Source of the DNA: a virus | Length of the DNA: 35,982 nucleotides | Virus record (IMG/VR): IMGVR_UViG_3300021495_000041 | Coordinates: 1-35,982 of that record | Direction: 5' to 3' (one strand) | Shown: in pieces, positions 44 to 31,300 of the stretch | Position numbering within the stretch: the stretch's first letter is position 1 | Layout of the letters: each line of letters opens with the position of its first letter | Program-made: the position numbers and the translations under genes | The notes under the pieces: model-generated | Seen by the model: only the letters and a program-made list of their open reading frames with translations | What the model was told of the DNA's origin: nothing | Databases searched by the model: none

Positions 44-1207
44 ATGGGAGAAGTAATTAAAACTTGTAGAGTGAAGCTGAATATCCTTCGGGAAAGGAGA
101 CAAGATGTTCTTGAAACTTTCAAACAGTACAACTTTGCTGCCAGTTTCTGTGTAGATAAGGCTTGGGAGCCTAAAAAGAAAATTACAGACAGGCTTGAGC
201 TTCATAAGCTTACTTATTACCCACTCCGAGAAAAAACAGACCTTGTTGCTGGACTTATAATCTCTGCTCGTAACAAAGCTTGTGACGCTGTTAGGCTTTG
301 TGTTGTCAACTGGAGTAGGAAGAGGAAAGCTTCCAAGCCAGTCTTTGGATCTTTCTCCGCAATTCGGTTCGATAAAAACACTGTTACTGTCAAAAACAGA
401 GAGTGTACTTTCTCTGCTTTAGGTGGCAGAGTAAAAGCTAAGTATGTACTTGGAGACTACCAAAAGAAAATCCTTGACGACCCTGATTACGAATTCAGAA
501 CCGGTACACTCACCTTTAATGGTAAGGATTTCTTCCTTAATATATCTGTAGTTAAATCTGTGCCCATCAAAGAAACAGGCACCATCATGGGTGTCGACTT
601 AGGCATCAATAATATTGCTGTTACCTCTACTGGTAGGTTCTTTAAAGCGGGGATTTTGAACGACAAAAGAAGGCAATACGCCGAGAGAAGATCCAAGATC
701 CAGCGCAAAGGCACTCGCTCCGCTCATCTCTTGCTTAAAAGAATGAGTAAGCGAGAAAACAGTTTCTCGCGCTGGGTCTTGCACAATATATCGCGACGTA
801 TTATAGAGGAGGCAAAACGAGTTGGTGCTAGTGTGATTGCTATGGAAAATCTCAAAGGAATCAGAGAACGCACTAAGAAGCGTGGGAAATCTCACAGACA
901 CAGAATCTCACTTTGGGCTTTCTTCAGGCTTCAAAGGTTCATTCAGTACAAAGCGCTGGAAGAGGGAATTAATGTTCAGTTTGTTGACCCGAAGTATACT
1001 TCGCAGAGATGTAGTAAATGTGGGAGCGTCTGCCAATCTAACCGGAATGGTTCTGTGTATCATTGCAGAGCTTGTGGTTATCAAGTCCATGCTGATTATA
1101 ATGCCTCCAAGAACATTACGTATTTAGTCCGGGAAGGCAAAAGTTCCTTCTTGGACTGGGCAGTGTGTAAGCCTGCCCTAAATCAGGAACTGGTTATGGT
1201 TCACTGA
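44..1207 (+). CDS. tnpB: TnpB (OrfB), RNA-guided endonuclease of IS200/IS605 family
   Basis: The 387-residue protein has all the marks of an intact TnpB. The RuvC-like catalytic acidic residues are visible as D185 (in GVDLGINN), E268 (in AMENLKG) and D351 (in HADYNASKN). A zinc ribbon is formed by C323/C326 and C341/C344. TnpB proteins cut DNA guided by an omega-RNA made from the transposon right end, and help retain the element. No TnpA transposase gene is in the window, so this is a solo, IS1341-like copy, or tnpA lies upstream of base 1. The ATG start is preceded by only a weak ribosome-binding site. The length is usual for the family. I see no frameshift or missing catalytic residue, so the nuclease is probably active. 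Confidence 0.95.
   Translation: MGEVIKTCRVKLNILRERRQDVLETFKQYNFAASFCVDKAWEPKKKITDRLELHKLTYYPLREKTDLVAGLIISARNKACDAVRLCVVNWSRKRKASKPVFGSFSAIRFDKNTVTVKNRECTFSALGGRVKAKYVLGDYQKKILDDPDYEFRTGTLTFNGKDFFLNISVVKSVPIKETGTIMGVDLGINNIAVTSTGRFFKAGILNDKRRQYAERRSKIQRKGTRSAHLLLKRMSKRENSFSRWVLHNISRRIIEEAKRVGASVIAMENLKGIRERTKKRGKSHRHRISLWAFFRLQRFIQYKALEEGINVQFVDPKYTSQRCSKCGSVCQSNRNGSVYHCRACGYQVHADYNASKNITYLVREGKSSFLDWAVCKPALNQELVMVH
1158..1206 (+). ncRNA. Candidate omega-RNA 3' portion / right-end hairpins of the TnpB element
   Basis: Two hairpins sit back to back at the 3' end of tnpB. One has a perfect 6-bp stem GGGCAG/CTGCCC (1158-1163 with 1173-1178, 9-base loop). The other pairs CAGGAAC (1184-1190) with GTTC-A-CTG (1199-1206), with one bulged base. 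TnpB omega-RNAs are known to overlap the tnpB 3' end and end at the element's right end, with the guide just downstream. The hairpins are seen directly. The RNA identity and its 3' boundary are inferred. Confidence 0.35.
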
Positions 1208-1219
1208 TAAAATCTTTAT

Positions 1220-1237
1220 AAGGGGGGATAGCTTACG
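1220..1237 (+). promoter_or_regulatory. G-rich Shine-Dalgarno followed by TAG-CTT-ACG initiation region
   Basis: A GGGGGG run (1222-1227) lies seven bases before an ACG at 1235 that opens the KH-domain reading frame. An in-frame TAG (1229-1231) only two codons upstream closes the frame, so initiation from an upstream codon is excluded. The 18 bases match the initiation region at 5171-5188 at 15 positions, and the last nine (TAGCTTACG) are identical. The next canonical codon is GTG 1256, which lies too far from the G-run for ordinary Shine-Dalgarno spacing. Confidence 0.5.
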
Positions 1238-1495
1238 GAGAGAGTAGTAAATGTAGTGAGAGAGGTTGCGTACGCCATTGTAGGTCCTAATAAGGTTAAA
1301 GTAGAACACAGTGGAGGAAACCAGACTCTCTTGATCACACTACGGGCAGTAGATCGGAAGTCGGCGGGTTTACTGATTGGGAAGAATGGTCGGATTATTT
1401 CGGCTATTAGAGTCATCGCGCAGGTTGTCGGTCAGTCTGTTGATCGGATGATGAAAGTTGTAGTTGAGGTGTTTACCGAAGGGAACCGCGCGTAG
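1235..1495 (+). CDS. KhpA-like single KH-domain RNA-binding protein (probable ACG start)
   Basis: The reading frame encodes a single KH domain of about 86 residues, the size of bacterial KhpA proteins, which bind RNA and often act as small-RNA chaperones with KhpB. The GxxG RNA-binding loop is visible as G49-K-N-G52, flanked by a typical LLIG...ISAIRVIA helix pair. Starting at ACG 1235 gives the N-terminal helix (MERVVNVV) expected for the family. The first conventional start, GTG 1256, would remove seven residues of that helix and has poor ribosome-binding spacing. The gene follows tnpB by 27 bases and may be read from its transcript. A KH chaperone in a phage-like region is uncommon. The family call is confident; the start codon is inferred. 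Confidence 0.75.
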   Translation, partial: TERVVNVVREVAYAIVGPNKVKVEHSGGNQTLLITLRAVDRKSAGLLIGKNGRIISAIRVIAQVVGQSVDRMMKVVVEVFTEGNRA

Positions 1496-2245: not shown

Positions 2246-2533
2246 ATGACTCAGTTTATTACGAGCTATAGGGGTTGGGACGTCTATTTTGATGGTAAGG
2301 AGGAACTTACTGCTGGTGATCCACAATGGACCTTGATCTATTCACCCCTGCCTCAGACATCATCACTACCCCAGCAGCTAAGGGGTCAGGTTGTCTGGCT
2401 TCATGGTGGTTTGAGTCTGCGTGAGGTTAAGTGTTGTATTGATTATATAATGGGTTACTCCTTGTCTGATAATGTCCGGCACGTAATCGCGTCGTATTTG
2501 CGCCATATCTTAGCGATAAGCGCGGGTTCCTAG
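2246..2533 (+). CDS. Hypothetical protein
   Basis: I do not recognise this 95-residue protein. It begins MTQFITSYRGWDVYF, has a proline- and serine-rich middle (YSPLPQTSSLPQQL), and ends in a mainly hydrophobic helix-like region without a clear membrane segment. An in-frame TTG at 2231 is an alternative start that would overlap the preceding gene. The ATG at 2246 is preceded directly by GAAGG, so ribosome-binding spacing does not settle the choice. It lies in an early-type string of short genes. Confidence 0.55.
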   Translation: MTQFITSYRGWDVYFDGKEELTAGDPQWTLIYSPLPQTSSLPQQLRGQVVWLHGGLSLREVKCCIDYIMGYSLSDNVRHVIASYLRHILAISAGS

Positions 2534-2566: not shown

Positions 2567-3133
2567 TTGCCAACAAGTAATCCGTACGCAATAGTACACT
2601 TCATTGAAAAACTGATGGAGATGAAACCGCAATCCATACTTGATGTCGGTCCTGGTTTTGGGAAGTATGGGTTCTTAGCCAGGGAATATTTGGAAGTGTG
2701 GTTTTGGAGAATAAAGAAGTCTGAATGGAAAATCCGGATCGACTGTCTCGAGGCTTACGAGCCGTACATAAGTGTGGTTCATAAGTACATTTATGACAAC
2801 ATTTACATTGGGGATGTGAGGGAGTTTCCGCTGCATACCCTTCCGAACTACGATGTGATCATCTTCTCAGACGTCATTGAGCATATGGAAAAGGACGTTG
2901 GAAAGAAGGTGCTTGCGCGGCTTTACGGCAAAGCGAACAAAGCGGTTTTAGTATCTACTCCCGCTGAGTGGTATGGAGCTATGAAGGGGTGTAAGCCGGA
3001 CGATTTCGAGTCACATGTTTGTTACTGGGCACCTGAGGAAATTCTAGCTATCTATAAAAACACGGAGATAATCTATAGCGGGAGTGAAAAAGGGAAAAAA
3101 ACATACCTGGCAGTGATTAAGAAGAATTCATAA
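2567..3133 (+). CDS. Class I SAM-dependent methyltransferase
   Basis: The 188-residue protein has the Rossmann methyltransferase signature. Motif I is ILDVGPGFG (residues 24-32), an acidic strand end follows (DCLEAYEP), and YDVIIFSDVIEHME matches the motif IV/post-motif region of small-molecule and sugar methyltransferases. No target-recognition domain or NPPY/DPPY motif is seen, so a DNA N6-adenine methylase is unlikely. The substrate is unknown. The start is a TTG four bases after GGAGGT. The 3' end overlaps that of the convergent ligase gene by six bases. A shorter, degenerate paralogue lies at 16244-16702. Two glycosyltransferases follow the ligase, so methylation of a glycan is one possibility. 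Confidence 0.85.
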   Translation: MPTSNPYAIVHFIEKLMEMKPQSILDVGPGFGKYGFLAREYLEVWFWRIKKSEWKIRIDCLEAYEPYISVVHKYIYDNIYIGDVREFPLHTLPNYDVIIFSDVIEHMEKDVGKKVLARLYGKANKAVLVSTPAEWYGAMKGCKPDDFESHVCYWAPEEILAIYKNTEIIYSGSEKGKKTYLAVIKKNS

Positions 3134-4129
3134 CTTCCTGTGCATCTCCAGTACACCAAAGGCTTTAGCTGTCTTGATGATGGTGTCGACTGAATTGACG
3201 GGGGCAGTGGTTTTGGTTTGTATTTTGGGCGCATATAGATGCACTCTTTTGATTTTCCCGTCCTTCATGTAAGCGCTCACGTTGAAGCATGCTACTGCTG
3301 CATGATCACCAGGGGTGAGTCGGAGTCGTGTGTTGTAGCTTCTGGCGACTTTTATTAGCTTTCCTTCATGTGTAAGTGCTCCTAAGTCGTAGTTGTAAAC
3401 CCCTCTGGTTCTTGTGGGAATTCGTTTAAGAACCGACAAAGCGAATTCGATGTACTTCTTGAATTTTATGAATCTCAGGTTACGCGCGGTTTGATTTGTG
3501 GGTTTGATGATGACTCCTTCAAAGTGACGCAATCTGCAAATCTTTTTGGCGACCGCTTGAAGTGATGTTGGATTTTTTACACGCCAGTATGGAACCATGT
3601 TCAACGGTACCCTAGAGGGGGTGAGGAGCTGCGGTAGCTTGAGGGTCTTAAGCGAGTTTAACCTTTCTTGGGTGTTTTTTGTTGATATGTCTACCTCATT
3701 TAAGTATAAGCAGTCGAACAGGGTGACAACTTCGTGCACCCCTGGGGGGAGGTTTCTCTTTCTTCGATGTATAAGCCCAGTTATTAGGCCTCTAGCTTCA
3801 TGCTTCCCGTTGATAAAGAGTTCTAGTTCCCCTTCAGCTACTAGGGTTTTACAAGGAAGCTGTTTCACTTTCTCGACGATCTTACTGCTGATATTTGCTG
3901 TTAGGTTGTTACCTAAATCAGACCAAACACGGACTTCACTCCCATCTTTCGCGACTTGTACATAGAGCCCATCGTATTTGGGCTCAACGATAACATCTTT
4001 AATACCTCTCCTCTGAAGGTATTTATACACATCCGTGGTTCGGATTGGCTTTCTCACGTCGAAGATGAACGCGTCGTAAACGTGACGTCTTCCGTTGAAC
4101 CTGGTGGGACTTATTTCTGCTTTAAGCAC
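3128..4129 (-). CDS. ATP-dependent DNA ligase
   Basis: The 333-residue protein carries the nucleotidyltransferase motifs of ATP-dependent DNA ligases. The adenylated lysine is K51 in EPKYDG (motif I), motif III is TLFDCLYLNEVD (about 136-147), motif IV is FEGVIIKP (203-210) and motif V is FIKFKK (220-225). The C-terminal third looks like the OB-fold domain. Such ligases seal nicks during phage replication and repair; the short length fits a minimal two-domain phage enzyme. It is the only minus-strand gene among the first 12.5 kb. Its GTG start has no ribosome-binding site, but a sigma70-like promoter upstream (4136-4164) places the predicted transcription start on the GTG, suggesting leaderless translation. 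Confidence 0.9.
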   Translation of the reverse strand: MLKAEISPTRFNGRRHVYDAFIFDVRKPIRTTDVYKYLQRRGIKDVIVEPKYDGLYVQVAKDGSEVRVWSDLGNNLTANISSKIVEKVKQLPCKTLVAEGELELFINGKHEARGLITGLIHRRKRNLPPGVHEVVTLFDCLYLNEVDISTKNTQERLNSLKTLKLPQLLTPSRVPLNMVPYWRVKNPTSLQAVAKKICRLRHFEGVIIKPTNQTARNLRFIKFKKYIEFALSVLKRIPTRTRGVYNYDLGALTHEGKLIKVARSYNTRLRLTPGDHAAVACFNVSAYMKDGKIKRVHLYAPKIQTKTTAPVNSVDTIIKTAKAFGVLEMHRKL

Positions 4130-4232: not shown

Positions 4233-5141
4233 GTGAAGTTAGTGCGGATCCGCTCGTTTTTTCCTGCGAATGATTTGGGTCTTAGCGGTCGTATTGGTAT
4301 TGTTACAGAAGAGTTTAACGATCAGCTTCGTGTTCATATTCCGGGGAAAGGCTTATGGTGGTTTTTCCCAGAGGAGGTTGATATGCAGTGTCTACCTTGT
4401 TTTACTTTTTGGACTGGGGGCAATGTCCCCGACTACTTTTTCGATTGTTTAGAGTCTCTCCACTTCCTCGGGGGGCTAGATGTTGTACTTTGCCTTGACG
4501 GTCCTAAATTGGATCGTGTGCCAGTCACTGTAGCGAGCTTGGAGGACCTCCTTAGTCGTAGTGAGTTAAGAGTTTACCATTCACTCAAGGGACGCTTTGT
4601 AGAGGTGAACCGAGCTGATTATTTTAGGATTGTAGTGTTGGCGAAGTATGGTGGGTTCTATTGTGACACCGACGTCTTTGCTATACGTCCGTTTTCGGAG
4701 CTAGTTAAGGATGTGTCTACCTATATTGCGTCTGAAGACGGGTTACACTTAAGTAATGGCATTGTATATGCGTCTTCACCTCATCAACCCGTGTTCGATT
4801 ATATGTATGAACATTTTTTAGAGAGGTACAGACCTGATACGTTCAACCTTGTTGGGCCACGTTGGTATAGTGAACTTGTGTATATGTTTGACAAGGTGGA
4901 TTATGTTTCCAAGCGACACTATTTTGTAGGTTGGAGGGAGTTTAAAAAACTCTTTGAACCCACTTCAATTACGGTTGAGGAGTTACTTCAGGAAAGCGTT
5001 TATAGCGTCCACCTATGGGGAGAGATGCTTAGAAGGACGCAGTTTCGTGTTTCAGACGCGCACCCTGATTCCTTGTTTGTAAAACTAACTCGATATCTTG
5101 AATCAAAGCGACCCTACGTGCATTCTGTAATTACTCCCTGA
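4233..5141 (+). CDS. GT32-like (DXD) glycosyltransferase with N-terminal SH3-like domain
   Basis: The central region matches the DXD sugar-binding glycosyltransferases (Gly_transf_sug, GT32-like): an FTFWTGG start near residue 57, then NRADYFRIVVLAKYGG followed by D145-T-D147, the metal and nucleotide-sugar binding DXD motif. Residues about 1-50, before the transferase fold, look like a small beta-barrel (RIGIVTEEF...LRVHIPG), which is not usual for the family. The GTG at 4233 gives a natural N-terminus (MKLVRIRS). An upstream in-frame TTG at 4197 would add 12 polar residues and also lacks a Shine-Dalgarno site. The enzyme probably transfers a sugar from a nucleotide donor; the acceptor (host glycan, virion protein or DNA) is unknown. 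A second glycosyltransferase follows. Confidence 0.8.
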   Translation: MKLVRIRSFFPANDLGLSGRIGIVTEEFNDQLRVHIPGKGLWWFFPEEVDMQCLPCFTFWTGGNVPDYFFDCLESLHFLGGLDVVLCLDGPKLDRVPVTVASLEDLLSRSELRVYHSLKGRFVEVNRADYFRIVVLAKYGGFYCDTDVFAIRPFSELVKDVSTYIASEDGLHLSNGIVYASSPHQPVFDYMYEHFLERYRPDTFNLVGPRWYSELVYMFDKVDYVSKRHYFVGWREFKKLFEPTSITVEELLQESVYSVHLWGEMLRRTQFRVSDAHPDSLFVKLTRYLESKRPYVHSVITP

Positions 5142-5170
5142 TGGACGAAGGTGGTGTAATTTGAGGCAAA

Positions 5171-5188
5171 TAGGAGGGGTAGCTTACG
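5171..5188 (+). promoter_or_regulatory. GGAGGGG Shine-Dalgarno followed by TAG-CTT-ACG initiation region
   Basis: A strong AGGAGGGG (5172-5179) is followed by an in-frame TAG (5180-5182), CTT and then ACG at 5186, eight bases after AGGAGG. It matches 1220-1237 at 15 of 18 positions. No ATG, GTG or TTG occurs in this frame until GTG 5276, 90 bases downstream and without a ribosome-binding site. Confidence 0.55.
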
Positions 5189-6139
5189 CGCATTCTGTAT
5201 ATTTGTAAAGATTACACGAACTGGATTGGGGTTTCACACATTGAGTTTAAGCGTGAGCTGTCTAAGCTTGTTGATGTGACCTTTTATCATCAGCCTTGCC
5301 ACTTACCCCACCTGATTGAGACGTATAAGGAACAAGGTAAAGACTTTGATGTTGTGATGTTAGGTGAAGCACCTCCCGTTACACCACCCGTTACTGGTAT
5401 TGATAGGGTGAGTTTACCAAAAGTAGTACACTACTGGGATCTACACTCTTACATCCCTGAAAGAGTTGAATTTGTTAGGAAAAATAAGATAGACCTGATT
5501 GTCTTTAAGTACAAAAATGCTTTATTGAAGCACTTCAAGCAGCTTATGATTACTAAGAGTGCGTGGGTCCCTATCGGAGCCGCGTCACTGTTTAAAGACT
5601 ATCAGCTTCCAAAGTCAATAGACATCTTGCTTACGGGTTGGGTTAGTCCTCAGTACTACCCTTTTAGGTCGCAGGCGTTAAGGTCCTTTCAAGGTTTCCC
5701 TGGATTTTACTACCTTAAACACCCCGGCTACAGACACTTTGAACCCAGTGAAGTTGTTATGGGTGCTGATTACGCACGGTTGTTGAACCGGGCCAAGCTT
5801 GTAGTAACTGATGGAGGTAAGTTTGATTACCTTGTAGCTAAATACTTTGAAGTACCTGCTTGTAAATCGGCCTTAGTAACACCCTGTTTTGATGACTTAT
5901 TGGAGTTAGGTTACAAGCCATATGAGCACTTTATACCCGCTTCTTTAGAAAACTTGGAAGAGGTCGTCTTTAAATCCTTGAGCGATGAAGAGTTGGTGAA
6001 GGAAGTGTCCTGCAATGGGCATCACTTAGTGCACCAGAAGTATACTATGGAGTGTATGGCAAAGCAGTTTGTTAACACATTATGTGCCTTATTGAGAGAA
6101 CCACAAATGTTTGAGAGCCCATTACCTCAATTCATTTAA
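5186..6139 (+). CDS. GT-B glycosyltransferase, CgeB/DUF3880-like (probable ACG start)
   Basis: Read from ACG 5186, the 317-residue protein begins MRILYICKDYTNWIG, a textbook first beta-strand of a GT-B glycosyltransferase. The C-terminal half resembles the CgeB-type glycosyl transferase group 1 domain: FEVPACKSALVTP, then ELGYKPYEHFIP and a late HHLVHQKYTMECMAKQF. The conventional start GTG 5276 would delete the first 30 residues, including that strand, and has no ribosome-binding site, whereas ACG 5186 has a strong one at ideal spacing. The activity is probably retaining transfer of a sugar from an activated donor; donor and acceptor are unknown. It lies 44 bases after the GT32 gene and is probably co-transcribed, so the two enzymes may build one glycan. 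Confidence 0.75.
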   Translation, partial: TRILYICKDYTNWIGVSHIEFKRELSKLVDVTFYHQPCHLPHLIETYKEQGKDFDVVMLGEAPPVTPPVTGIDRVSLPKVVHYWDLHSYIPERVEFVRKNKIDLIVFKYKNALLKHFKQLMITKSAWVPIGAASLFKDYQLPKSIDILLTGWVSPQYYPFRSQALRSFQGFPGFYYLKHPGYRHFEPSEVVMGADYARLLNRAKLVVTDGGKFDYLVAKYFEVPACKSALVTPCFDDLLELGYKPYEHFIPASLENLEEVVFKSLSDEELVKEVSCNGHHLVHQKYTMECMAKQFVNTLCALLREPQMFESPLPQFI

Positions 6140-6677: not shown

Positions 6678-7340
6678 ATGTCTATCATAGAAAAGAAGAG
6701 AGGCATTGTTATCGCGTTGGACGTCACAGACGTGGATTCGGCCGTTGAGCTTGCTAGGCAACTCTGTGACCTTGAAGGTAACTTTGTCTTTAAAATAGGA
6801 CGCCCCCTAGAGATGCAAAGGGGGTATAAAGTCATTTCTGAGATTAAAAAGGTTTCCCGGATTCCGGTAGTTTACGACGGAAAAATTGCTGATATTCCTT
6901 ACATTTCAAGCCGCATAGCTCAAATTGCCTATGAAGCAGGAGCTGATGCTGTTATTGTTCACGGTTTTGTAGGTAGAGATGTTATAGAAAGCATCCTAGA
7001 GTTAAATAGGGGCGATGTAATAGTAGTTATGAGCATGACCCATCCTGGTGCTTCTCAATATATTAATCCAATAGCAAAGCAGTTAGTGGAAACAGTCAAT
7101 ACTTTGGGCGTAGATGGTGTAGTTTTACCCGCTACAAAGCCGGAAATTATAGCTTCTGTTGCTCCCGTACTAAGGGAGAACATTTATATCATGTCTCCCG
7201 GCATAAAAGTTCAGGGTGCTAAGGTTGGGGATGCAATAAGAGCAGGGGCCGATTACGAGATTACGGGAAGGGCTATTTATGGCGCTTCAGATCCTAAAAA
7301 AGCAGCGGAAGAGCTTTATAAAGAAATATTGGAGGTATAG
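6678..7340 (+). CDS. pyrF: Orotidine 5'-phosphate decarboxylase
   Basis: The enzyme decarboxylates OMP to UMP, the final step of de novo pyrimidine synthesis. The 220-residue (beta/alpha)8 barrel has the expected motifs: ALDV at residues 13-16, K39 in FKIG, the catalytic DxKxxD as D67-G-K-I-A-D72, and a phosphate-binding C-terminus (SPGIK near 174, GADYEITGRAI near 195). The length is typical of short archaeal and bacterial forms. A strong AAAGGAGG precedes the ATG. pyrE follows within two bases, so the pair forms a minimal pathway for orotate to UMP. Codons look richer in A/T (ATA, GAA, AAA) than in several neighbours, consistent with acquisition from a cellular genome, though I did not measure this. 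Confidence 0.95.
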   Translation: MSIIEKKRGIVIALDVTDVDSAVELARQLCDLEGNFVFKIGRPLEMQRGYKVISEIKKVSRIPVVYDGKIADIPYISSRIAQIAYEAGADAVIVHGFVGRDVIESILELNRGDVIVVMSMTHPGASQYINPIAKQLVETVNTLGVDGVVLPATKPEIIASVAPVLRENIYIMSPGIKVQGAKVGDAIRAGADYEITGRAIYGASDPKKAAEELYKEILEV

Positions 7341-7341
7341 A

Positions 7342-8001
7342 ATGCTGACAGCCTATAAGGAGGAATTCATCCACCACCTATTTAAGACAGGTGCTATCAA
7401 GTTTGGGGAGTTTAGGTTAAAAAGTGGTCGCATATCTCCTTATTTTATAAATATGGGGTTGGCAATGAAGGACGGAGAGGGATGTTCTAAAGTAGGAACA
7501 ATATACGCACAGGCCATTTGGGATAATTTAGGAGACAGTTTTGATTATATTCACGGCCCGGCTTATAAGGGTATTCCTCTGGCTTCACTAGTTGCTGAAA
7601 AGTTGTGGGAGCGTTATGAGGTCAGTAGACGGTGGGGTTATGACAGGAAGGAGAGCAAGGATTATGGAGACACTGCGGAAAAACTTATTGTGGGTGATTT
7701 ACACGATGCGGACCGAGTGCTGATTGTAGATGATGTTATCACCACAGGAAAGACTAAGGTTGATAATTGGCAAAGACTTTCTGCTTTGAGAAAAGTCCTA
7801 CCTGTTGGCATTTTTATCGCAGTGGATAGACAAGAGTTAGCTAAAGAGGATCTCAACATACTTATGCAACATGACCTTAAGATTTTTAAGATAGTTGAGA
7901 TAAAGGAGGTTTTCGAATACCTGCTTTCGGAGAAGCTTGTCACAGAAGAAACTTTTGCCCGGTTTGATAAGTATATTAAGAGCGTGGTTGGGGGAGAGTA
8001 A
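7342..8001 (+). CDS. pyrE: Orotate phosphoribosyltransferase
   Basis: This enzyme joins orotate and PRPP to make OMP, the substrate of the adjacent PyrF. The PRPP-binding signature VLIVDDVITTGKT lies at residues 126-138, the flexible catalytic loop contains DRKESKDYGD (101-110), and the N-terminal RLKSGRISPYFIN matches the orotate site. The 219-residue length is normal. ATG 7342 follows GGAGGT at the very end of pyrF and was chosen over upstream in-frame codons that lie inside pyrF. The stop overlaps the next ATG (TAATG), so pyrF, pyrE and the following gene are likely coupled. No carbamoyl-phosphate or dihydroorotate genes are in view, so the pair would depend on host orotate. Confidence 0.95.
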   Translation: MLTAYKEEFIHHLFKTGAIKFGEFRLKSGRISPYFINMGLAMKDGEGCSKVGTIYAQAIWDNLGDSFDYIHGPAYKGIPLASLVAEKLWERYEVSRRWGYDRKESKDYGDTAEKLIVGDLHDADRVLIVDDVITTGKTKVDNWQRLSALRKVLPVGIFIAVDRQELAKEDLNILMQHDLKIFKIVEIKEVFEYLLSEKLVTEETFARFDKYIKSVVGGE

Positions 8002-14315: not shown

Positions 14316-14509
14316 TACACCCTTCCTGATTTTATTAGTATTCCTCCCGCTGCTTGAATTATCTGAACGAATGCTTCGGGTGTCACCTTCCAAGGAGCTA
14401 TGTGATCCCACTCAAAGACCTTAACCAACGGGGCTATACACCCCTCAGAACAAAAATACTGACCCTTCTTTTTCCTTTCTCCACTTGGTGAATAGCCCGA
14501 AGCCAGCAA
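14315..14509 (-). CDS. C-terminal part of frameshifted permuted NlpC/P60-like protein
   Basis: This frame completes the protein begun at 14807. From the overlap onward it reads KGQYFCSEGCIAPLVKVFEW, where the cysteine in FCSE is in the right place for the nucleophile of permuted papain-like NlpC/P60 (DUF830/YiiX-type) proteins, in which the cysteine follows the histidine. The rest is helical (PEAFVQIIQAAGGILIK). Nothing suggests independent initiation. Joining the two frames by skipping one base near the run of five A (minus strand; 14469-14473) gives about 163 continuous residues. Confidence 0.6.
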   Translation of the reverse strand: MLASGYSPSGERKKKGQYFCSEGCIAPLVKVFEWDHIAPWKVTPEAFVQIIQAAGGILIKSGRV

Positions 14510-14807
14510 CGTAGTCGAACTTGGCTCTCGTCTTTACTAGCCCTAAGAAGAAGTTGTGGATGAACGTCTTGTGTGCTTCGCTGACTTCTAAGCCCCAAAT
14601 CTCGTACTTGTCCCCCTTTTTGTACCCTTTGAAAAGGGGACGTTTGTTCCATCTTACGTTCAGCAGCTGGTACCAGTGCTCGGGCCAGCACTCTATCACA
14701 TACCTGTCATTCCAGAGGTATGCTATATGGGAGTAGACTGATTGAGTTTGGTATTTGATGACCCTCGCGATCCAATCAGTCCCTTGGTAGGCTAAAAATC
14801 TAACCAT
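14445..14807 (-). CDS. N-terminal part of frameshifted permuted NlpC/P60-like protein
   Basis: The 120-residue frame begins VRFLAYQGTDWIARVIKY and contains H27 in SVYSHIAYL and E39 in YVIECWPEHW. These are the histidine and acidic partner expected at the N-terminal side of a permuted NlpC/P60 (DUF830-like) cysteine peptidase or amidase. YDYVAGFGLFTKW follows and normally leads straight to the catalytic cysteine, but here the frame passes an A/G-rich stretch (AGAAAGGAAAAAG) and stops after SVFLF. The cysteine lies in the +1 frame (14315-14509). The gene is therefore a recent frameshift mutant, a sequencing or assembly error, or a programmed +1 shift. Its start overlaps the lipoprotein stop. 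Confidence 0.65.
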   Translation of the reverse strand: MVRFLAYQGTDWIARVIKYQTQSVYSHIAYLWNDRYVIECWPEHWYQLLNVRWNKRPLFKGYKKGDKYEIWGLEVSEAHKTFIHNFFLGLVKTRAKFDYVAGFGLFTKWRKEKEGSVFLF

Positions 14808-28917: not shown

Positions 28918-29151
28918 CTAAACATCAGCTCTGACTACCTTTGGTTCACGTGGGGTTCCTTTTCTCTTCCCAATGACAACGTATTGTGTTCCTGCTCTTC
29001 CCACAACAACTCGATCACCTACTGTGAACGAGTGACTTGATGTAGCTCTTATGGTTGAAGCCCCAACCTTTACTATGTACAAGCCTTCACGGAATCCTGT
29101 AACCACGCCAGTCTTAAGCTCTTCACTAGTCTCGAGAAGGCGGATTTTCAA
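28918..29151 (-). CDS. Small OB/SH3-like baseplate protein
   Basis: The 77-residue protein is a compact beta-barrel candidate: GVVTGFREGLYIVKVGASTI, then FTVGDRVVVGRAGTQYVVIGKRKG, the pattern of OB-fold domains in gpV and gp45-like spike proteins. The TTG at 29151 was chosen because GGAGG lies nine bases upstream; the longer frame would extend back over the hub gene's end. It overlaps the hub gene by 26 bases and probably caps or links hub and spike. Confidence 0.65.
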   Translation of the reverse strand: MKIRLLETSEELKTGVVTGFREGLYIVKVGASTIRATSSHSFTVGDRVVVGRAGTQYVVIGKRKGTPREPKVVRADV

Positions 29152-31300
29152 AGCAAACAACCTCCAAATCTTGCCAAATTTTACGTGTACTTCCACTAAG
29201 ATTTATCACAATATTAGCCTGCCGTATCAAGCCGCGCCCGTACAAGTTGTGCACATCGTCTTCCAGGTCAGCAACTTCACCATCGACAGCACCTTCATAC
29301 GGGACCCGGAAGGTGAACTTTCTCTTAAGGTAGTAGTTATCATCCAAGAATGACTTCCCACGAGTTACAGCAACAGAGTCCGTTGCTATTAGATCATCGT
29401 CTATAGGATCACACTCCTTATCACCCTTACCCATGACTACCTTCACTGAGACAGCAGCGGCTTCTTCAGGGACAACAACACATACTAGGACGGGGCGTTC
29501 TTTTTCATCAGGCGCGAGTTTTCCACACGACACTTTATAGACATCATACTTTGTTGTGTATTTCACACGAAGTACACCACACTTACAGCCCGAAATATGA
29601 AGCGTTTTCCCGGTTCGTACCACACTTCCCCGACACTTACCTACCCAAGTATAGGAGAAGTCCTTGTAAACTGGATGTTTAAGGGAACCGCTCTCATTTG
29701 TGATAGTTATTGTCTCCTCTACCTCTTCCGTTTTCGCACCATGTACTTTTGTCACGGTCCCTGTTGAGACGACCTCGTACGGAAACCCAACTGGGTTTGC
29801 GTACACGCGAATATAAGCGCTATCAACGCCAGCTTCGTAGCATGGTTCACCGTCATCCATCTCCAATGTGAAAGAAACTTCATGACCTGTGGGCTCACCT
29901 TTTACAACCACAGCGTTACAAGTAGGGAGTTCTTCACTGTAGTCTAATGAAACTAAGTTAGTGTACCGATCGTAATGACGTGTTTCCGTTACTTCTGACA
30001 AGTCTTTCGGGCGAACAGTGAATTTTGGTCTGACCAATAAACTCCCGTCCGGTTTAGTACGAACAACAGCGCCTACTGTTTCAGCTAACCTTCCTATTAT
30101 ATCTAGGGGGTAACCTTCAAAACTACCATAAGGAATATAGTAGTCCACCGCTTCCCAATCTAGGGGTACACTACCAGCTAGTTCTGCCGCTATAGATGAC
30201 GCGTTTAGGTCTGACCACTCTTTGTCAACCTTCTCCGCGAACGGTTCTGTTAAGAGTGCTGCTTTAGCTCTCCCCCAAATCGTGAACTCTACTTCTGAAC
30301 CTTCACGTGACTCGAGAAGGAAAGAATATGTTGTGTCACCAACAGTTAATTGGATCCTTTCCACACCCCAGTTATGGGCAGGGTCACACATTGTGAACTT
30401 AGTGGGGTCTTTCACGGTAACCTCAATGTGATTGATCTTTTCGCTCTCTCTTTGGCTAACGTGAACTTCGCTCACGACCGTACTGAAATCAACTCCATCA
30501 ACCTTTAAAGACCAGTCAACCATCCTACGGGTATATGAAGCTAGGATTGACGAACCTATGTCCGGTGCGTTTGTGAACGTAAGTGTTAGATGACCGTTAG
30601 GATCAATGGCCCCACTAGCTATGTAGGTACCTGTTATGTTCCCGTCTTCATCAGCAACACCCTCGTATGAGACACTATTGATAGTGTAATGGATAACAAC
30701 GGAAGATATGTGCGGTGTATAAGTTAGGGTGTCGGTGAACGTCGTACTCACTCCGTCACCGAAACCTACTAGATCACTTGGAGCACCACCAACTGACGAT
30801 CGCAGATAATGCTCAGCAGTCAATGTAAATGTAGTCAAAACGTTACGTAGGAATTGACTCCTTTGTGTTGGGTCACTAGAGATCAGACTCTTCAACTGCT
30901 GCGCGATCCCATCAGTAATCTGATTCATGTGGTAAATGTGTGATGGAGTGTTGTATTTTACGATTGTGTTTTTCAGTTGTTGCACAGCACCGTCAATGAT
31001 TTGAGTTACAGGATAACTCCGTAGAGGTATGTTGAGTTTTGTAACTGTGTTCTTTAAAAACCGAGTTATGTTCTTTGGTGGTGGGAACTCGATTAATCCC
31101 CATTGACGCATCAGCCATATTAGTGGTTGAGCTTGGAACTGGTTCAGCACGCTTCCCGAACTAGTTATTAGATACCAAGGGATATGTGCTTCCCTCAGAA
31201 GGGATAACTGTAAGTATTGTCCTCCTGAATTTGTTAGAATCCCACTACGTGTTTGAACGAAGGCCTTGCCTGTCGTTTGGCCGAAAAGTACAACGGGCAC
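29126..31300 (-). CDS. Baseplate hub protein, gpD/late-control-like
   Basis: The 724-residue protein has four parts. Residues 81-155 hold two and a half helical repeats (LKNTVTKLN...IIDGAVQQ, LKNTIVKYN...ITDGIAQQ). Residues 178-258 are a beta module (GFGDGVSTTFTDTL...LASYTRR) seen in other tail proteins here. Residues about 262-485 fit the gpD/XkdQ hub fold (WSLKVDGVDFS, IQLTVGDTTYSFLLESREG, a YPLDIIGRLAETVGA helix, RPKDLSEVTETRHYDRYTNLV). Residues about 488-620 are the domain shared with the next two genes. The hub ring joins tail tube to spike. The GTG start follows GGGAG, in a 16-base overlap with the end of the gene before. Confidence 0.75.
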   Translation of the reverse strand: MPVVLFGQTTGKAFVQTRSGILTNSGGQYLQLSLLREAHIPWYLITSSGSVLNQFQAQPLIWLMRQWGLIEFPPPKNITRFLKNTVTKLNIPLRSYPVTQIIDGAVQQLKNTIVKYNTPSHIYHMNQITDGIAQQLKSLISSDPTQRSQFLRNVLTTFTLTAEHYLRSSVGGAPSDLVGFGDGVSTTFTDTLTYTPHISSVVIHYTINSVSYEGVADEDGNITGTYIASGAIDPNGHLTLTFTNAPDIGSSILASYTRRMVDWSLKVDGVDFSTVVSEVHVSQRESEKINHIEVTVKDPTKFTMCDPAHNWGVERIQLTVGDTTYSFLLESREGSEVEFTIWGRAKAALLTEPFAEKVDKEWSDLNASSIAAELAGSVPLDWEAVDYYIPYGSFEGYPLDIIGRLAETVGAVVRTKPDGSLLVRPKFTVRPKDLSEVTETRHYDRYTNLVSLDYSEELPTCNAVVVKGEPTGHEVSFTLEMDDGEPCYEAGVDSAYIRVYANPVGFPYEVVSTGTVTKVHGAKTEEVEETITITNESGSLKHPVYKDFSYTWVGKCRGSVVRTGKTLHISGCKCGVLRVKYTTKYDVYKVSCGKLAPDEKERPVLVCVVVPEEAAAVSVKVVMGKGDKECDPIDDDLIATDSVAVTRGKSFLDDNYYLKRKFTFRVPYEGAVDGEVADLEDDVHNLYGRGLIRQANIVINLSGSTRKIWQDLEVVCFENPPSRD

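What the first reader, a model, noticed from the sequence alone, without database searches (positions are those of the whole stretch)
1220..1237. KH-domain gene appears to start at ACG, within an initiation region shared with a second gene
The frame is closed by TAG two codons before ACG, a GGGGGG run lies at ribosome-binding distance from the ACG, and translation from ACG restores the KhpA-type N-terminal helix. The region matches 5171-5188 at 15 of 18 bases, with TAG-CTT-ACG in the same frame in both genes though the proteins are unrelated. Two independent cases make a chance mutation less likely. Possible explanations are deliberate weak ACG initiation, a regulated start, or editing of C to U to create AUG.
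Basis: partly seen in the sequence, partly recalled or inferred. Interest (0 to 1): 0.7.

Follow-up and report, generated by a model that had tools for sequence, protein, structure and literature searches.

The report
Two phage genes starting at ACG
Two unrelated genes of this bacterial virus appear to begin at the codon ACG instead of the usual ATG, GTG or TTG, in a nearly identical short ribosome-binding context; this probably keeps their protein output low and would be a start codon rarely or never documented for phages, but only an experiment can prove it.

Summary
A KhpA-like KH gene (1235-1495) and a glycosyltransferase gene (GT, 5186-6139) both lack ATG/GTG/TTG where they should start. 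Both carry a strong Shine-Dalgarno (SD) run exactly 8 nt before ACG, with the same TAGCTT spacer. For GT the case is strong: relatives at 46-49% identity start with ATG or GTG at, or one codon before, the ACG, and the next standard start would delete 30 residues including invariant ILYICKD. For KH it is good: relatives start AAGGAGGTAGGTTATG against AAGGGGGGATAGCTTACG here, and the GTG alternative halves helix 1. Four genes of the same module have weaker start codons here than in relatives (ACG, ACG, TTG, GTG against mostly ATG), which fits down-tuned expression. Two more ACG starts with the same spacer turned up in unrelated phages, but that search was for the motif, and a matched control does not prove that TAGCTT matters. 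Nothing points to RNA editing. Best reading: weak, SD-driven initiation at ACG, derived from ATG/GTG. A start-loss allele or consensus error is not excluded: no close relative covers this region and no reads were available.

The parts
1222..1227 (+). SD-like GGGGGG run of the KH gene
   Evidence: sequence; GGGGG 1222-1226 ends 8 nt before ACG
1229..1237 (+). TAGCTTACG: in-frame TAG, CTT, proposed ACG start (1235-1237) of the KH gene
   Evidence: relatives have TAGGTTATG after AAGGAGG
1235..1495 (+). KhpA-like KH-domain gene, 86 aa from ACG
   Evidence: PF13083 E 3e-10, residues 7-77; model helix 1 at residues 2-16
1256..1258 (+). GTG, first standard start in the KH frame (alternative start)
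   Evidence: would remove 7 residues, about half of helix 1
5141..5164 (+). mini-ORF ATG..TGA (MDEGGVI) overlapping the stop of the upstream glycosyltransferase gene and entering the 5' arm of the hairpin
   Evidence: sequence; role inferred
5154..5217 (+). predicted hairpin holding ACG in its apical loop and part of the SD in its stem
   Evidence: -22.8 kcal/mol, z -3.8, none of 200 shuffles; rank 1 of 44 window starts
5173..5179 (+). SD GGAGGGG of the GT gene
   Evidence: sequence; GGAGG 5173-5177 ends 8 nt before ACG
5180..5188 (+). TAGCTTACG: in-frame TAG, CTT, proposed ACG start (5186-5188) of the GT gene
   Evidence: GTG of L006 aligns with this ACG
5186..6139 (+). glycosyltransferase gene, 317 aa from ACG
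   Evidence: PF13524 E 8e-8; relatives L003-L009 at 46-49% identity from residue 2

Best explanation
ACG is the genuine, weak translation start of both genes. A strong SD 8 nt upstream places ACG in the ribosomal P site and initiator tRNA is accepted despite the mismatch at the middle codon position; the U at -1 (and -2) may add pairing with the initiator tRNA anticodon loop. The ACGs are derived (ATG or GTG in relatives) and lower the output of two accessory genes. At the glycosyltransferase gene a hairpin that holds ACG in its loop, and a mini-ORF coupled to the upstream gene, may lower it further or couple it to upstream translation. Shown by sequence: the anatomy, the absence of a standard start where homology begins, the relatives' start codons, the shared context, the predicted hairpin. 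Inferred: that ribosomes start there, how strongly, and that low output is selected.
For: Relatives of GT start ATG/GTG at or one codon before the ACG; KH relatives start AAGGAGGTAGGTTATG. Identical SD spacing and spacer at both sites, shared by 1.6e-4 of ordinary start pairs. Both frames are intact with their domains conserved. Four of five module genes have weaker start codons here than in relatives. Two further well-fitting ACG gene starts in unrelated phages. Precedent for strong SD plus non-canonical start at about 10% of AUG (PMC13009471); U at -1 aids initiation (PMC4587860).
Against: No expression data. ACG is a poor start in bacteria (my knowledge). The ACGs are not conserved in relatives. 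The outside examples were found by searching for the motif, and a matched control is not significant (2 of 71 against 0 of 145). KH could start at GTG 1256.
Confidence: 0.6

Rival explanations
1. Start-loss alleles: ATG mutated to ACG in each gene, and both are now barely or not translated in this lineage.
For: Relatives have ATG/GTG; a nearby gene of the same record carries a frameshift.
Against: Both frames are intact with conserved domains; two chance losses would not be expected to share an identical spacer and SD spacing; other phages have genes that fit an ACG start.
Confidence: 0.15
2. The KH gene starts at GTG 1256 and only the GT gene has an unusual start, so the shared motif is largely coincidence.
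For: GTG is a standard start only 7 codons downstream; the Pfam match begins at residue 7.
Against: No well-placed SD before 1256 (the nearest G-rich stretch, GGAGAG, lies about 13 nt upstream; by eye); the model's helix 1 spans residues 2-16; relatives start upstream.
Confidence: 0.1
3. Assembly or consensus error, or a minority variant, at one or both sites.
For: No close relative covers this region; the record has an extra A relative to G008 that breaks a gene near 14450.
Against: Two substitutions of the same kind in the same context are unlikely; in the region shared with G008, 27 of 29 start codons agree and the other two are not real start changes.
Confidence: 0.11
4. C-to-U editing of the mRNA turns ACG into AUG.
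For: ACG is the classic target for start-codon editing in plastids (PMC9845219).
Against: No editing enzyme was seen or looked for; mRNA C-to-U editing is not established in bacteria or phages to my knowledge, and the paper search brought no example; relatives carry ATG/GTG in the DNA.
Confidence: 0.02

Closest known systems
Non-canonical start codons with strong or extended SD (S. aureus infC AUA, cvfC1 AUU, ccpN AUA; E. coli infC AUU)
   Same: Strong SD at good spacing directs initiation at a codon other than AUG/GUG/UUG; expected low output (about 10% of AUG in S. aureus reporters; PMC13009471).
   Different: Those codons mismatch at position 3; ACG mismatches at the middle position. Here the codon is not conserved among relatives and the genes are phage accessory genes; no expression data.
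Chloroplast ACG starts (edited to AUG, or weak non-AUG initiation)
   Same: A gene whose DNA shows ACG at the start.
   Different: No editing evidence; a bacterial virus with a strong SD.
Translational coupling through a start-sequestering hairpin and upstream translation
   Same: The GT start lies in a strong predicted hairpin just downstream of a gene end and a mini-ORF.
   Different: No covariation support (relatives lack the hairpin) and no such structure at KH.
KhpA/KhpB KH-domain proteins
   Same: PF13083 match with the GKNG loop and an N-terminal helix.
   Different: Virus-borne and divergent; below the NCBIfam KhpA-type cut-offs.

Membership tests
SD-driven initiation at a non-canonical codon | gene homology begins at a codon that is not ATG/GTG/TTG, with no standard start available there | tested here: met
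   GT clearly; KH with a GTG alternative 7 codons downstream
SD-driven initiation at a non-canonical codon | strong SD at suitable spacing | tested here: met
   GGAGG / GGGGG 8 nt before ACG at both sites
SD-driven initiation at a non-canonical codon | non-canonical codon conserved among relatives | tested here: not met
   relatives have ATG or GTG
SD-driven initiation at a non-canonical codon | ribosomes initiate there and protein is made | not testable with these tools
   no ribosome profiling, proteomics or reporter data
C-to-U edited start codon | cDNA shows AUG | not testable with these tools
   no RNA data
KhpA/KhpB KH domain | profile match above curated cut-off | tested here: met
   PF13083 40.2 bits against cut-off 32.1; NCBIfam equivalogs below cut-off
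hairpin-coupled translation (GT gene) | start region more structured than chance | tested here: met
   z -3.8, none of 200 shuffles
hairpin-coupled translation (GT gene) | structure conserved or covarying in relatives | tested here: not met
   relatives' start regions are unremarkable

The most novel reading that the evidence does not exclude
GGAGG-N2-UAGCUU-ACG is a recurring phage translation-initiation element in which a defined spacer makes ACG a usable, deliberately weak start; it would occur in at least four unrelated genes from three unrelated phages (both window genes, L077, L146).
Probability: 0.12. Interest if true: 0.72.

Novelty: new variant of a known kind. Interest (0 to 1): 0.42.

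Why it matters
Gene finders using the usual ATG/GTG/TTG set would truncate both genes (GT by 30 residues) and cannot propose ACG. If ACG starts are used, phage annotations miss real N-termini, and a codon thought nearly useless in bacteria serves as a low-output setting. The claim is cheap to test with a reporter.

Tried and rejected
1) GGRGGGRTAGCTTACG in IMG/VR: 10 hits, none at a gene start by my reading. 2) 380 genomes of the phylum of MAG AUK014: two motif hits, neither a gene start. 3) Upstream start plus frameshift or TAG readthrough: reading by eye, I found no standard start in the other frames that stays open to the GT site, and a second in-frame TAG (5171) lies upstream; TnpB ends in TGA TAA before KH. 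4) Common RNA structure: only GT has one. 5) ATG-to-ACG at window 11039 in close relative G008: looked like a third case, but G008 also has a 1-nt deletion and starts at an in-frame GTG; rejected. 6) tRNA or known RNA family in the window: none. 7) Phage GenBank relatives of KH and GT: none. 8) IS605 target (TTAC) or element-end explanation of the repeat: considered; no TnpB lies at the GT site. 9) More KH relatives by direct scans: none; they were reached through the GT-bearing records.

Full report
OBSERVATION. The window is a 35,982-base virus record. At 1220-1237 it reads AAGGGGGGATAGCTTACG and at 5171-5188 TAGGAGGGGTAGCTTACG: 15 of 18 bases match, and each is followed in frame with ACG by a gene with no ATG, GTG or TTG at its beginning. 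SD spacing is the same (8 nt) and the spacer TAGCTT identical. TAGCTTACG occurs only at these two places. Among 646 SD-led starts of this virus and its relatives, 1.6e-4 of all pairs match as well as this pair.

GENE IDENTITY. The first gene encodes a KhpA/KhpB-type KH domain (PF13083, E 3e-10), the second a Glyco_trans_1_2 glycosyltransferase (PF13524, E 8e-8); the proteins are unrelated.

START OF THE GLYCOSYLTRANSFERASE. Seven relatives in IMG/VR (46-49% identity; several are near-identical copies) start ATG-CTG/TTA-AAG/AGG-ATT or GTG-AAA-ATT. In the alignment the GTG of L006 falls on the ACG column and the ATG of the others one codon before it. The next standard start, 5276, would remove 30 residues including invariant ILYICKD and TNWI and the predicted first strand and helix (the model is low-confidence overall, pLDDT 77 over residues 1-10).

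START OF THE KH GENE. Five of the seven GT-bearing records also hold a KH gene. In G001, G002, G003 and G007 it starts AAGGAGGTAGGTTATG, and in G006 with an ATG in another context. The first is strikingly like AAGGGGGGATAGCTTACG, though the proteins share only about 32% identity and the relatives have six more N-terminal residues. The AlphaFold model puts helix 1 at residues 2-16 (mean pLDDT 67); GTG 1256 (residue 8) would cut it. The KH evidence is therefore good but weaker than that for GT.

MODULE CONTEXT. KH, a ligase-like gene (3128-4129, minus strand) and a methyltransferase-like gene (2567) (both names are my reading; the second gave no Pfam match, the first was not scanned), GT1 (4197) and GT2 (5186) have counterparts in one region of G001. 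Start codons in the relatives are ATG (one GT2 is GTG); in the window they are ACG, GTG, TTG, ATG (internal 4383 for GT1) and ACG. Four of five are weaker here, which fits a module tuned down in this lineage.

ACG ELSEWHERE. Two unrelated phage contigs have well-fitting genes starting at GGAGG-N2-TAGCTTACG. In L146 the ACG lies 3 nt after the stop of the preceding gene, the gene's end overlaps the ATG of the next (baseplate J-like by my reading), and the protein matches the sheath-initiator family from near its first residues (E 3e-4, below Pfam's cut-off). In L077 the gene follows a tail-like gene and reads (T)AWTTPKTW; I recall phage proteins beginning MAWTTP, but no relative was found to test this. 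Both were found by searching for the motif. Across 2.58 Mb of viral DNA, 1557 ACG codons lie at SD distance and four fit as gene starts, all with TAGCTT; with the matched control GGAGG-N6-8-ACG the comparison is 2 of 71 against 0 of 145, not significant alone. So ACG starts seem to exist in other phages; a special role of TAGCTT is only suggested. A gene of a relative (G001, L045 15694) has the same TAGCTT spacer with ATG.

RNA STRUCTURE. The GT start lies in a predicted hairpin (-22.8 kcal/mol, z -3.8; none of 200 shuffles as stable; rank 1 of 44 window starts): stems 5154-5162/5209-5217 and 5166-5172/5200-5206, SD bases 5176-5179 in the upper stem, ACG in the apical loop. A mini-ORF (5141-5164) overlaps the stop of GT1 and enters the 5' arm, so translation arriving from upstream could open the hairpin. 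Relatives lack this hairpin and KH has none, so it is a feature of one gene, without covariation support.

MECHANISM. A strong SD holds the 30S subunit so that ACG is in the P site; initiator tRNA pairs at positions 1 and 3, with a mismatch at 2. U at -1 can extend pairing to the anticodon loop (U preferred at -1: PMC4587860). IF3 penalises such complexes (PMC2268962), so output should be low. In S. aureus, extended SDs support AUU/AUA starts at about 10% of AUG (PMC13009471). The steps on the ribosome are inferred.

LIMITS. The left 8.9 kb has no close relative: G008 and G009 (about 90-97% identical DNA elsewhere) both end at the base matching window 8900. The window has an extra A that breaks a gene near 14,450, so record flaws or real mutations occur; against a general substitution problem, 27 of 29 start codons tested agree with G008 and the other two are not real start changes. 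No reads or expression data were available. IMG/VR scans may omit near-identical records.

VERDICT. Real feature; most likely weak ACG initiation in an SD-strong context derived from ATG/GTG; no support for editing.

Noticed in passing
window about 14440-14460 (minus strand): An extra A in an A run relative to close relative G008 shifts the frame of a YiiX/CHAP-like gene (14445-14807 continues in another frame as GQYFCSEGCIAPL); G008 is intact there.
   Followed up: partly
window 2498-2531 and L051 15614-15647 (G008): A 34-nt identical stretch, TTGCGCCATATCTTAGCGATAAGCGCGGGTTCCT, in otherwise unrelated context.
   Followed up: partly
window 8900: Contigs G008 (131 kb) and G009 (65 kb) both end at the base matching window 8900, which is a gene start; possibly trimming at a predicted boundary, or a real junction.
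   Followed up: partly
window 6678-8001: The virus record carries an orotidine-5'-phosphate decarboxylase gene followed by a phosphoribosyltransferase gene, apparently pyrF-pyrE-like.
   Followed up: no
window 44-1207: TnpB-family gene (NF040570, E 3e-53) directly upstream of the KH gene and in the same frame, ending TGATAA.
   Followed up: no
L045 15694 (G001): A gene of unknown function (phrog_1501) in a relative starts AGAGGAGGTAGCTTATG, the same TAGCTT spacer with ATG.
   Followed up: partly
window 28918-29196 and 29126-31300 (minus strand): Two long frames overlap by about 70 nt, also in G008; possible frameshift site or gene overlap.
   Followed up: no
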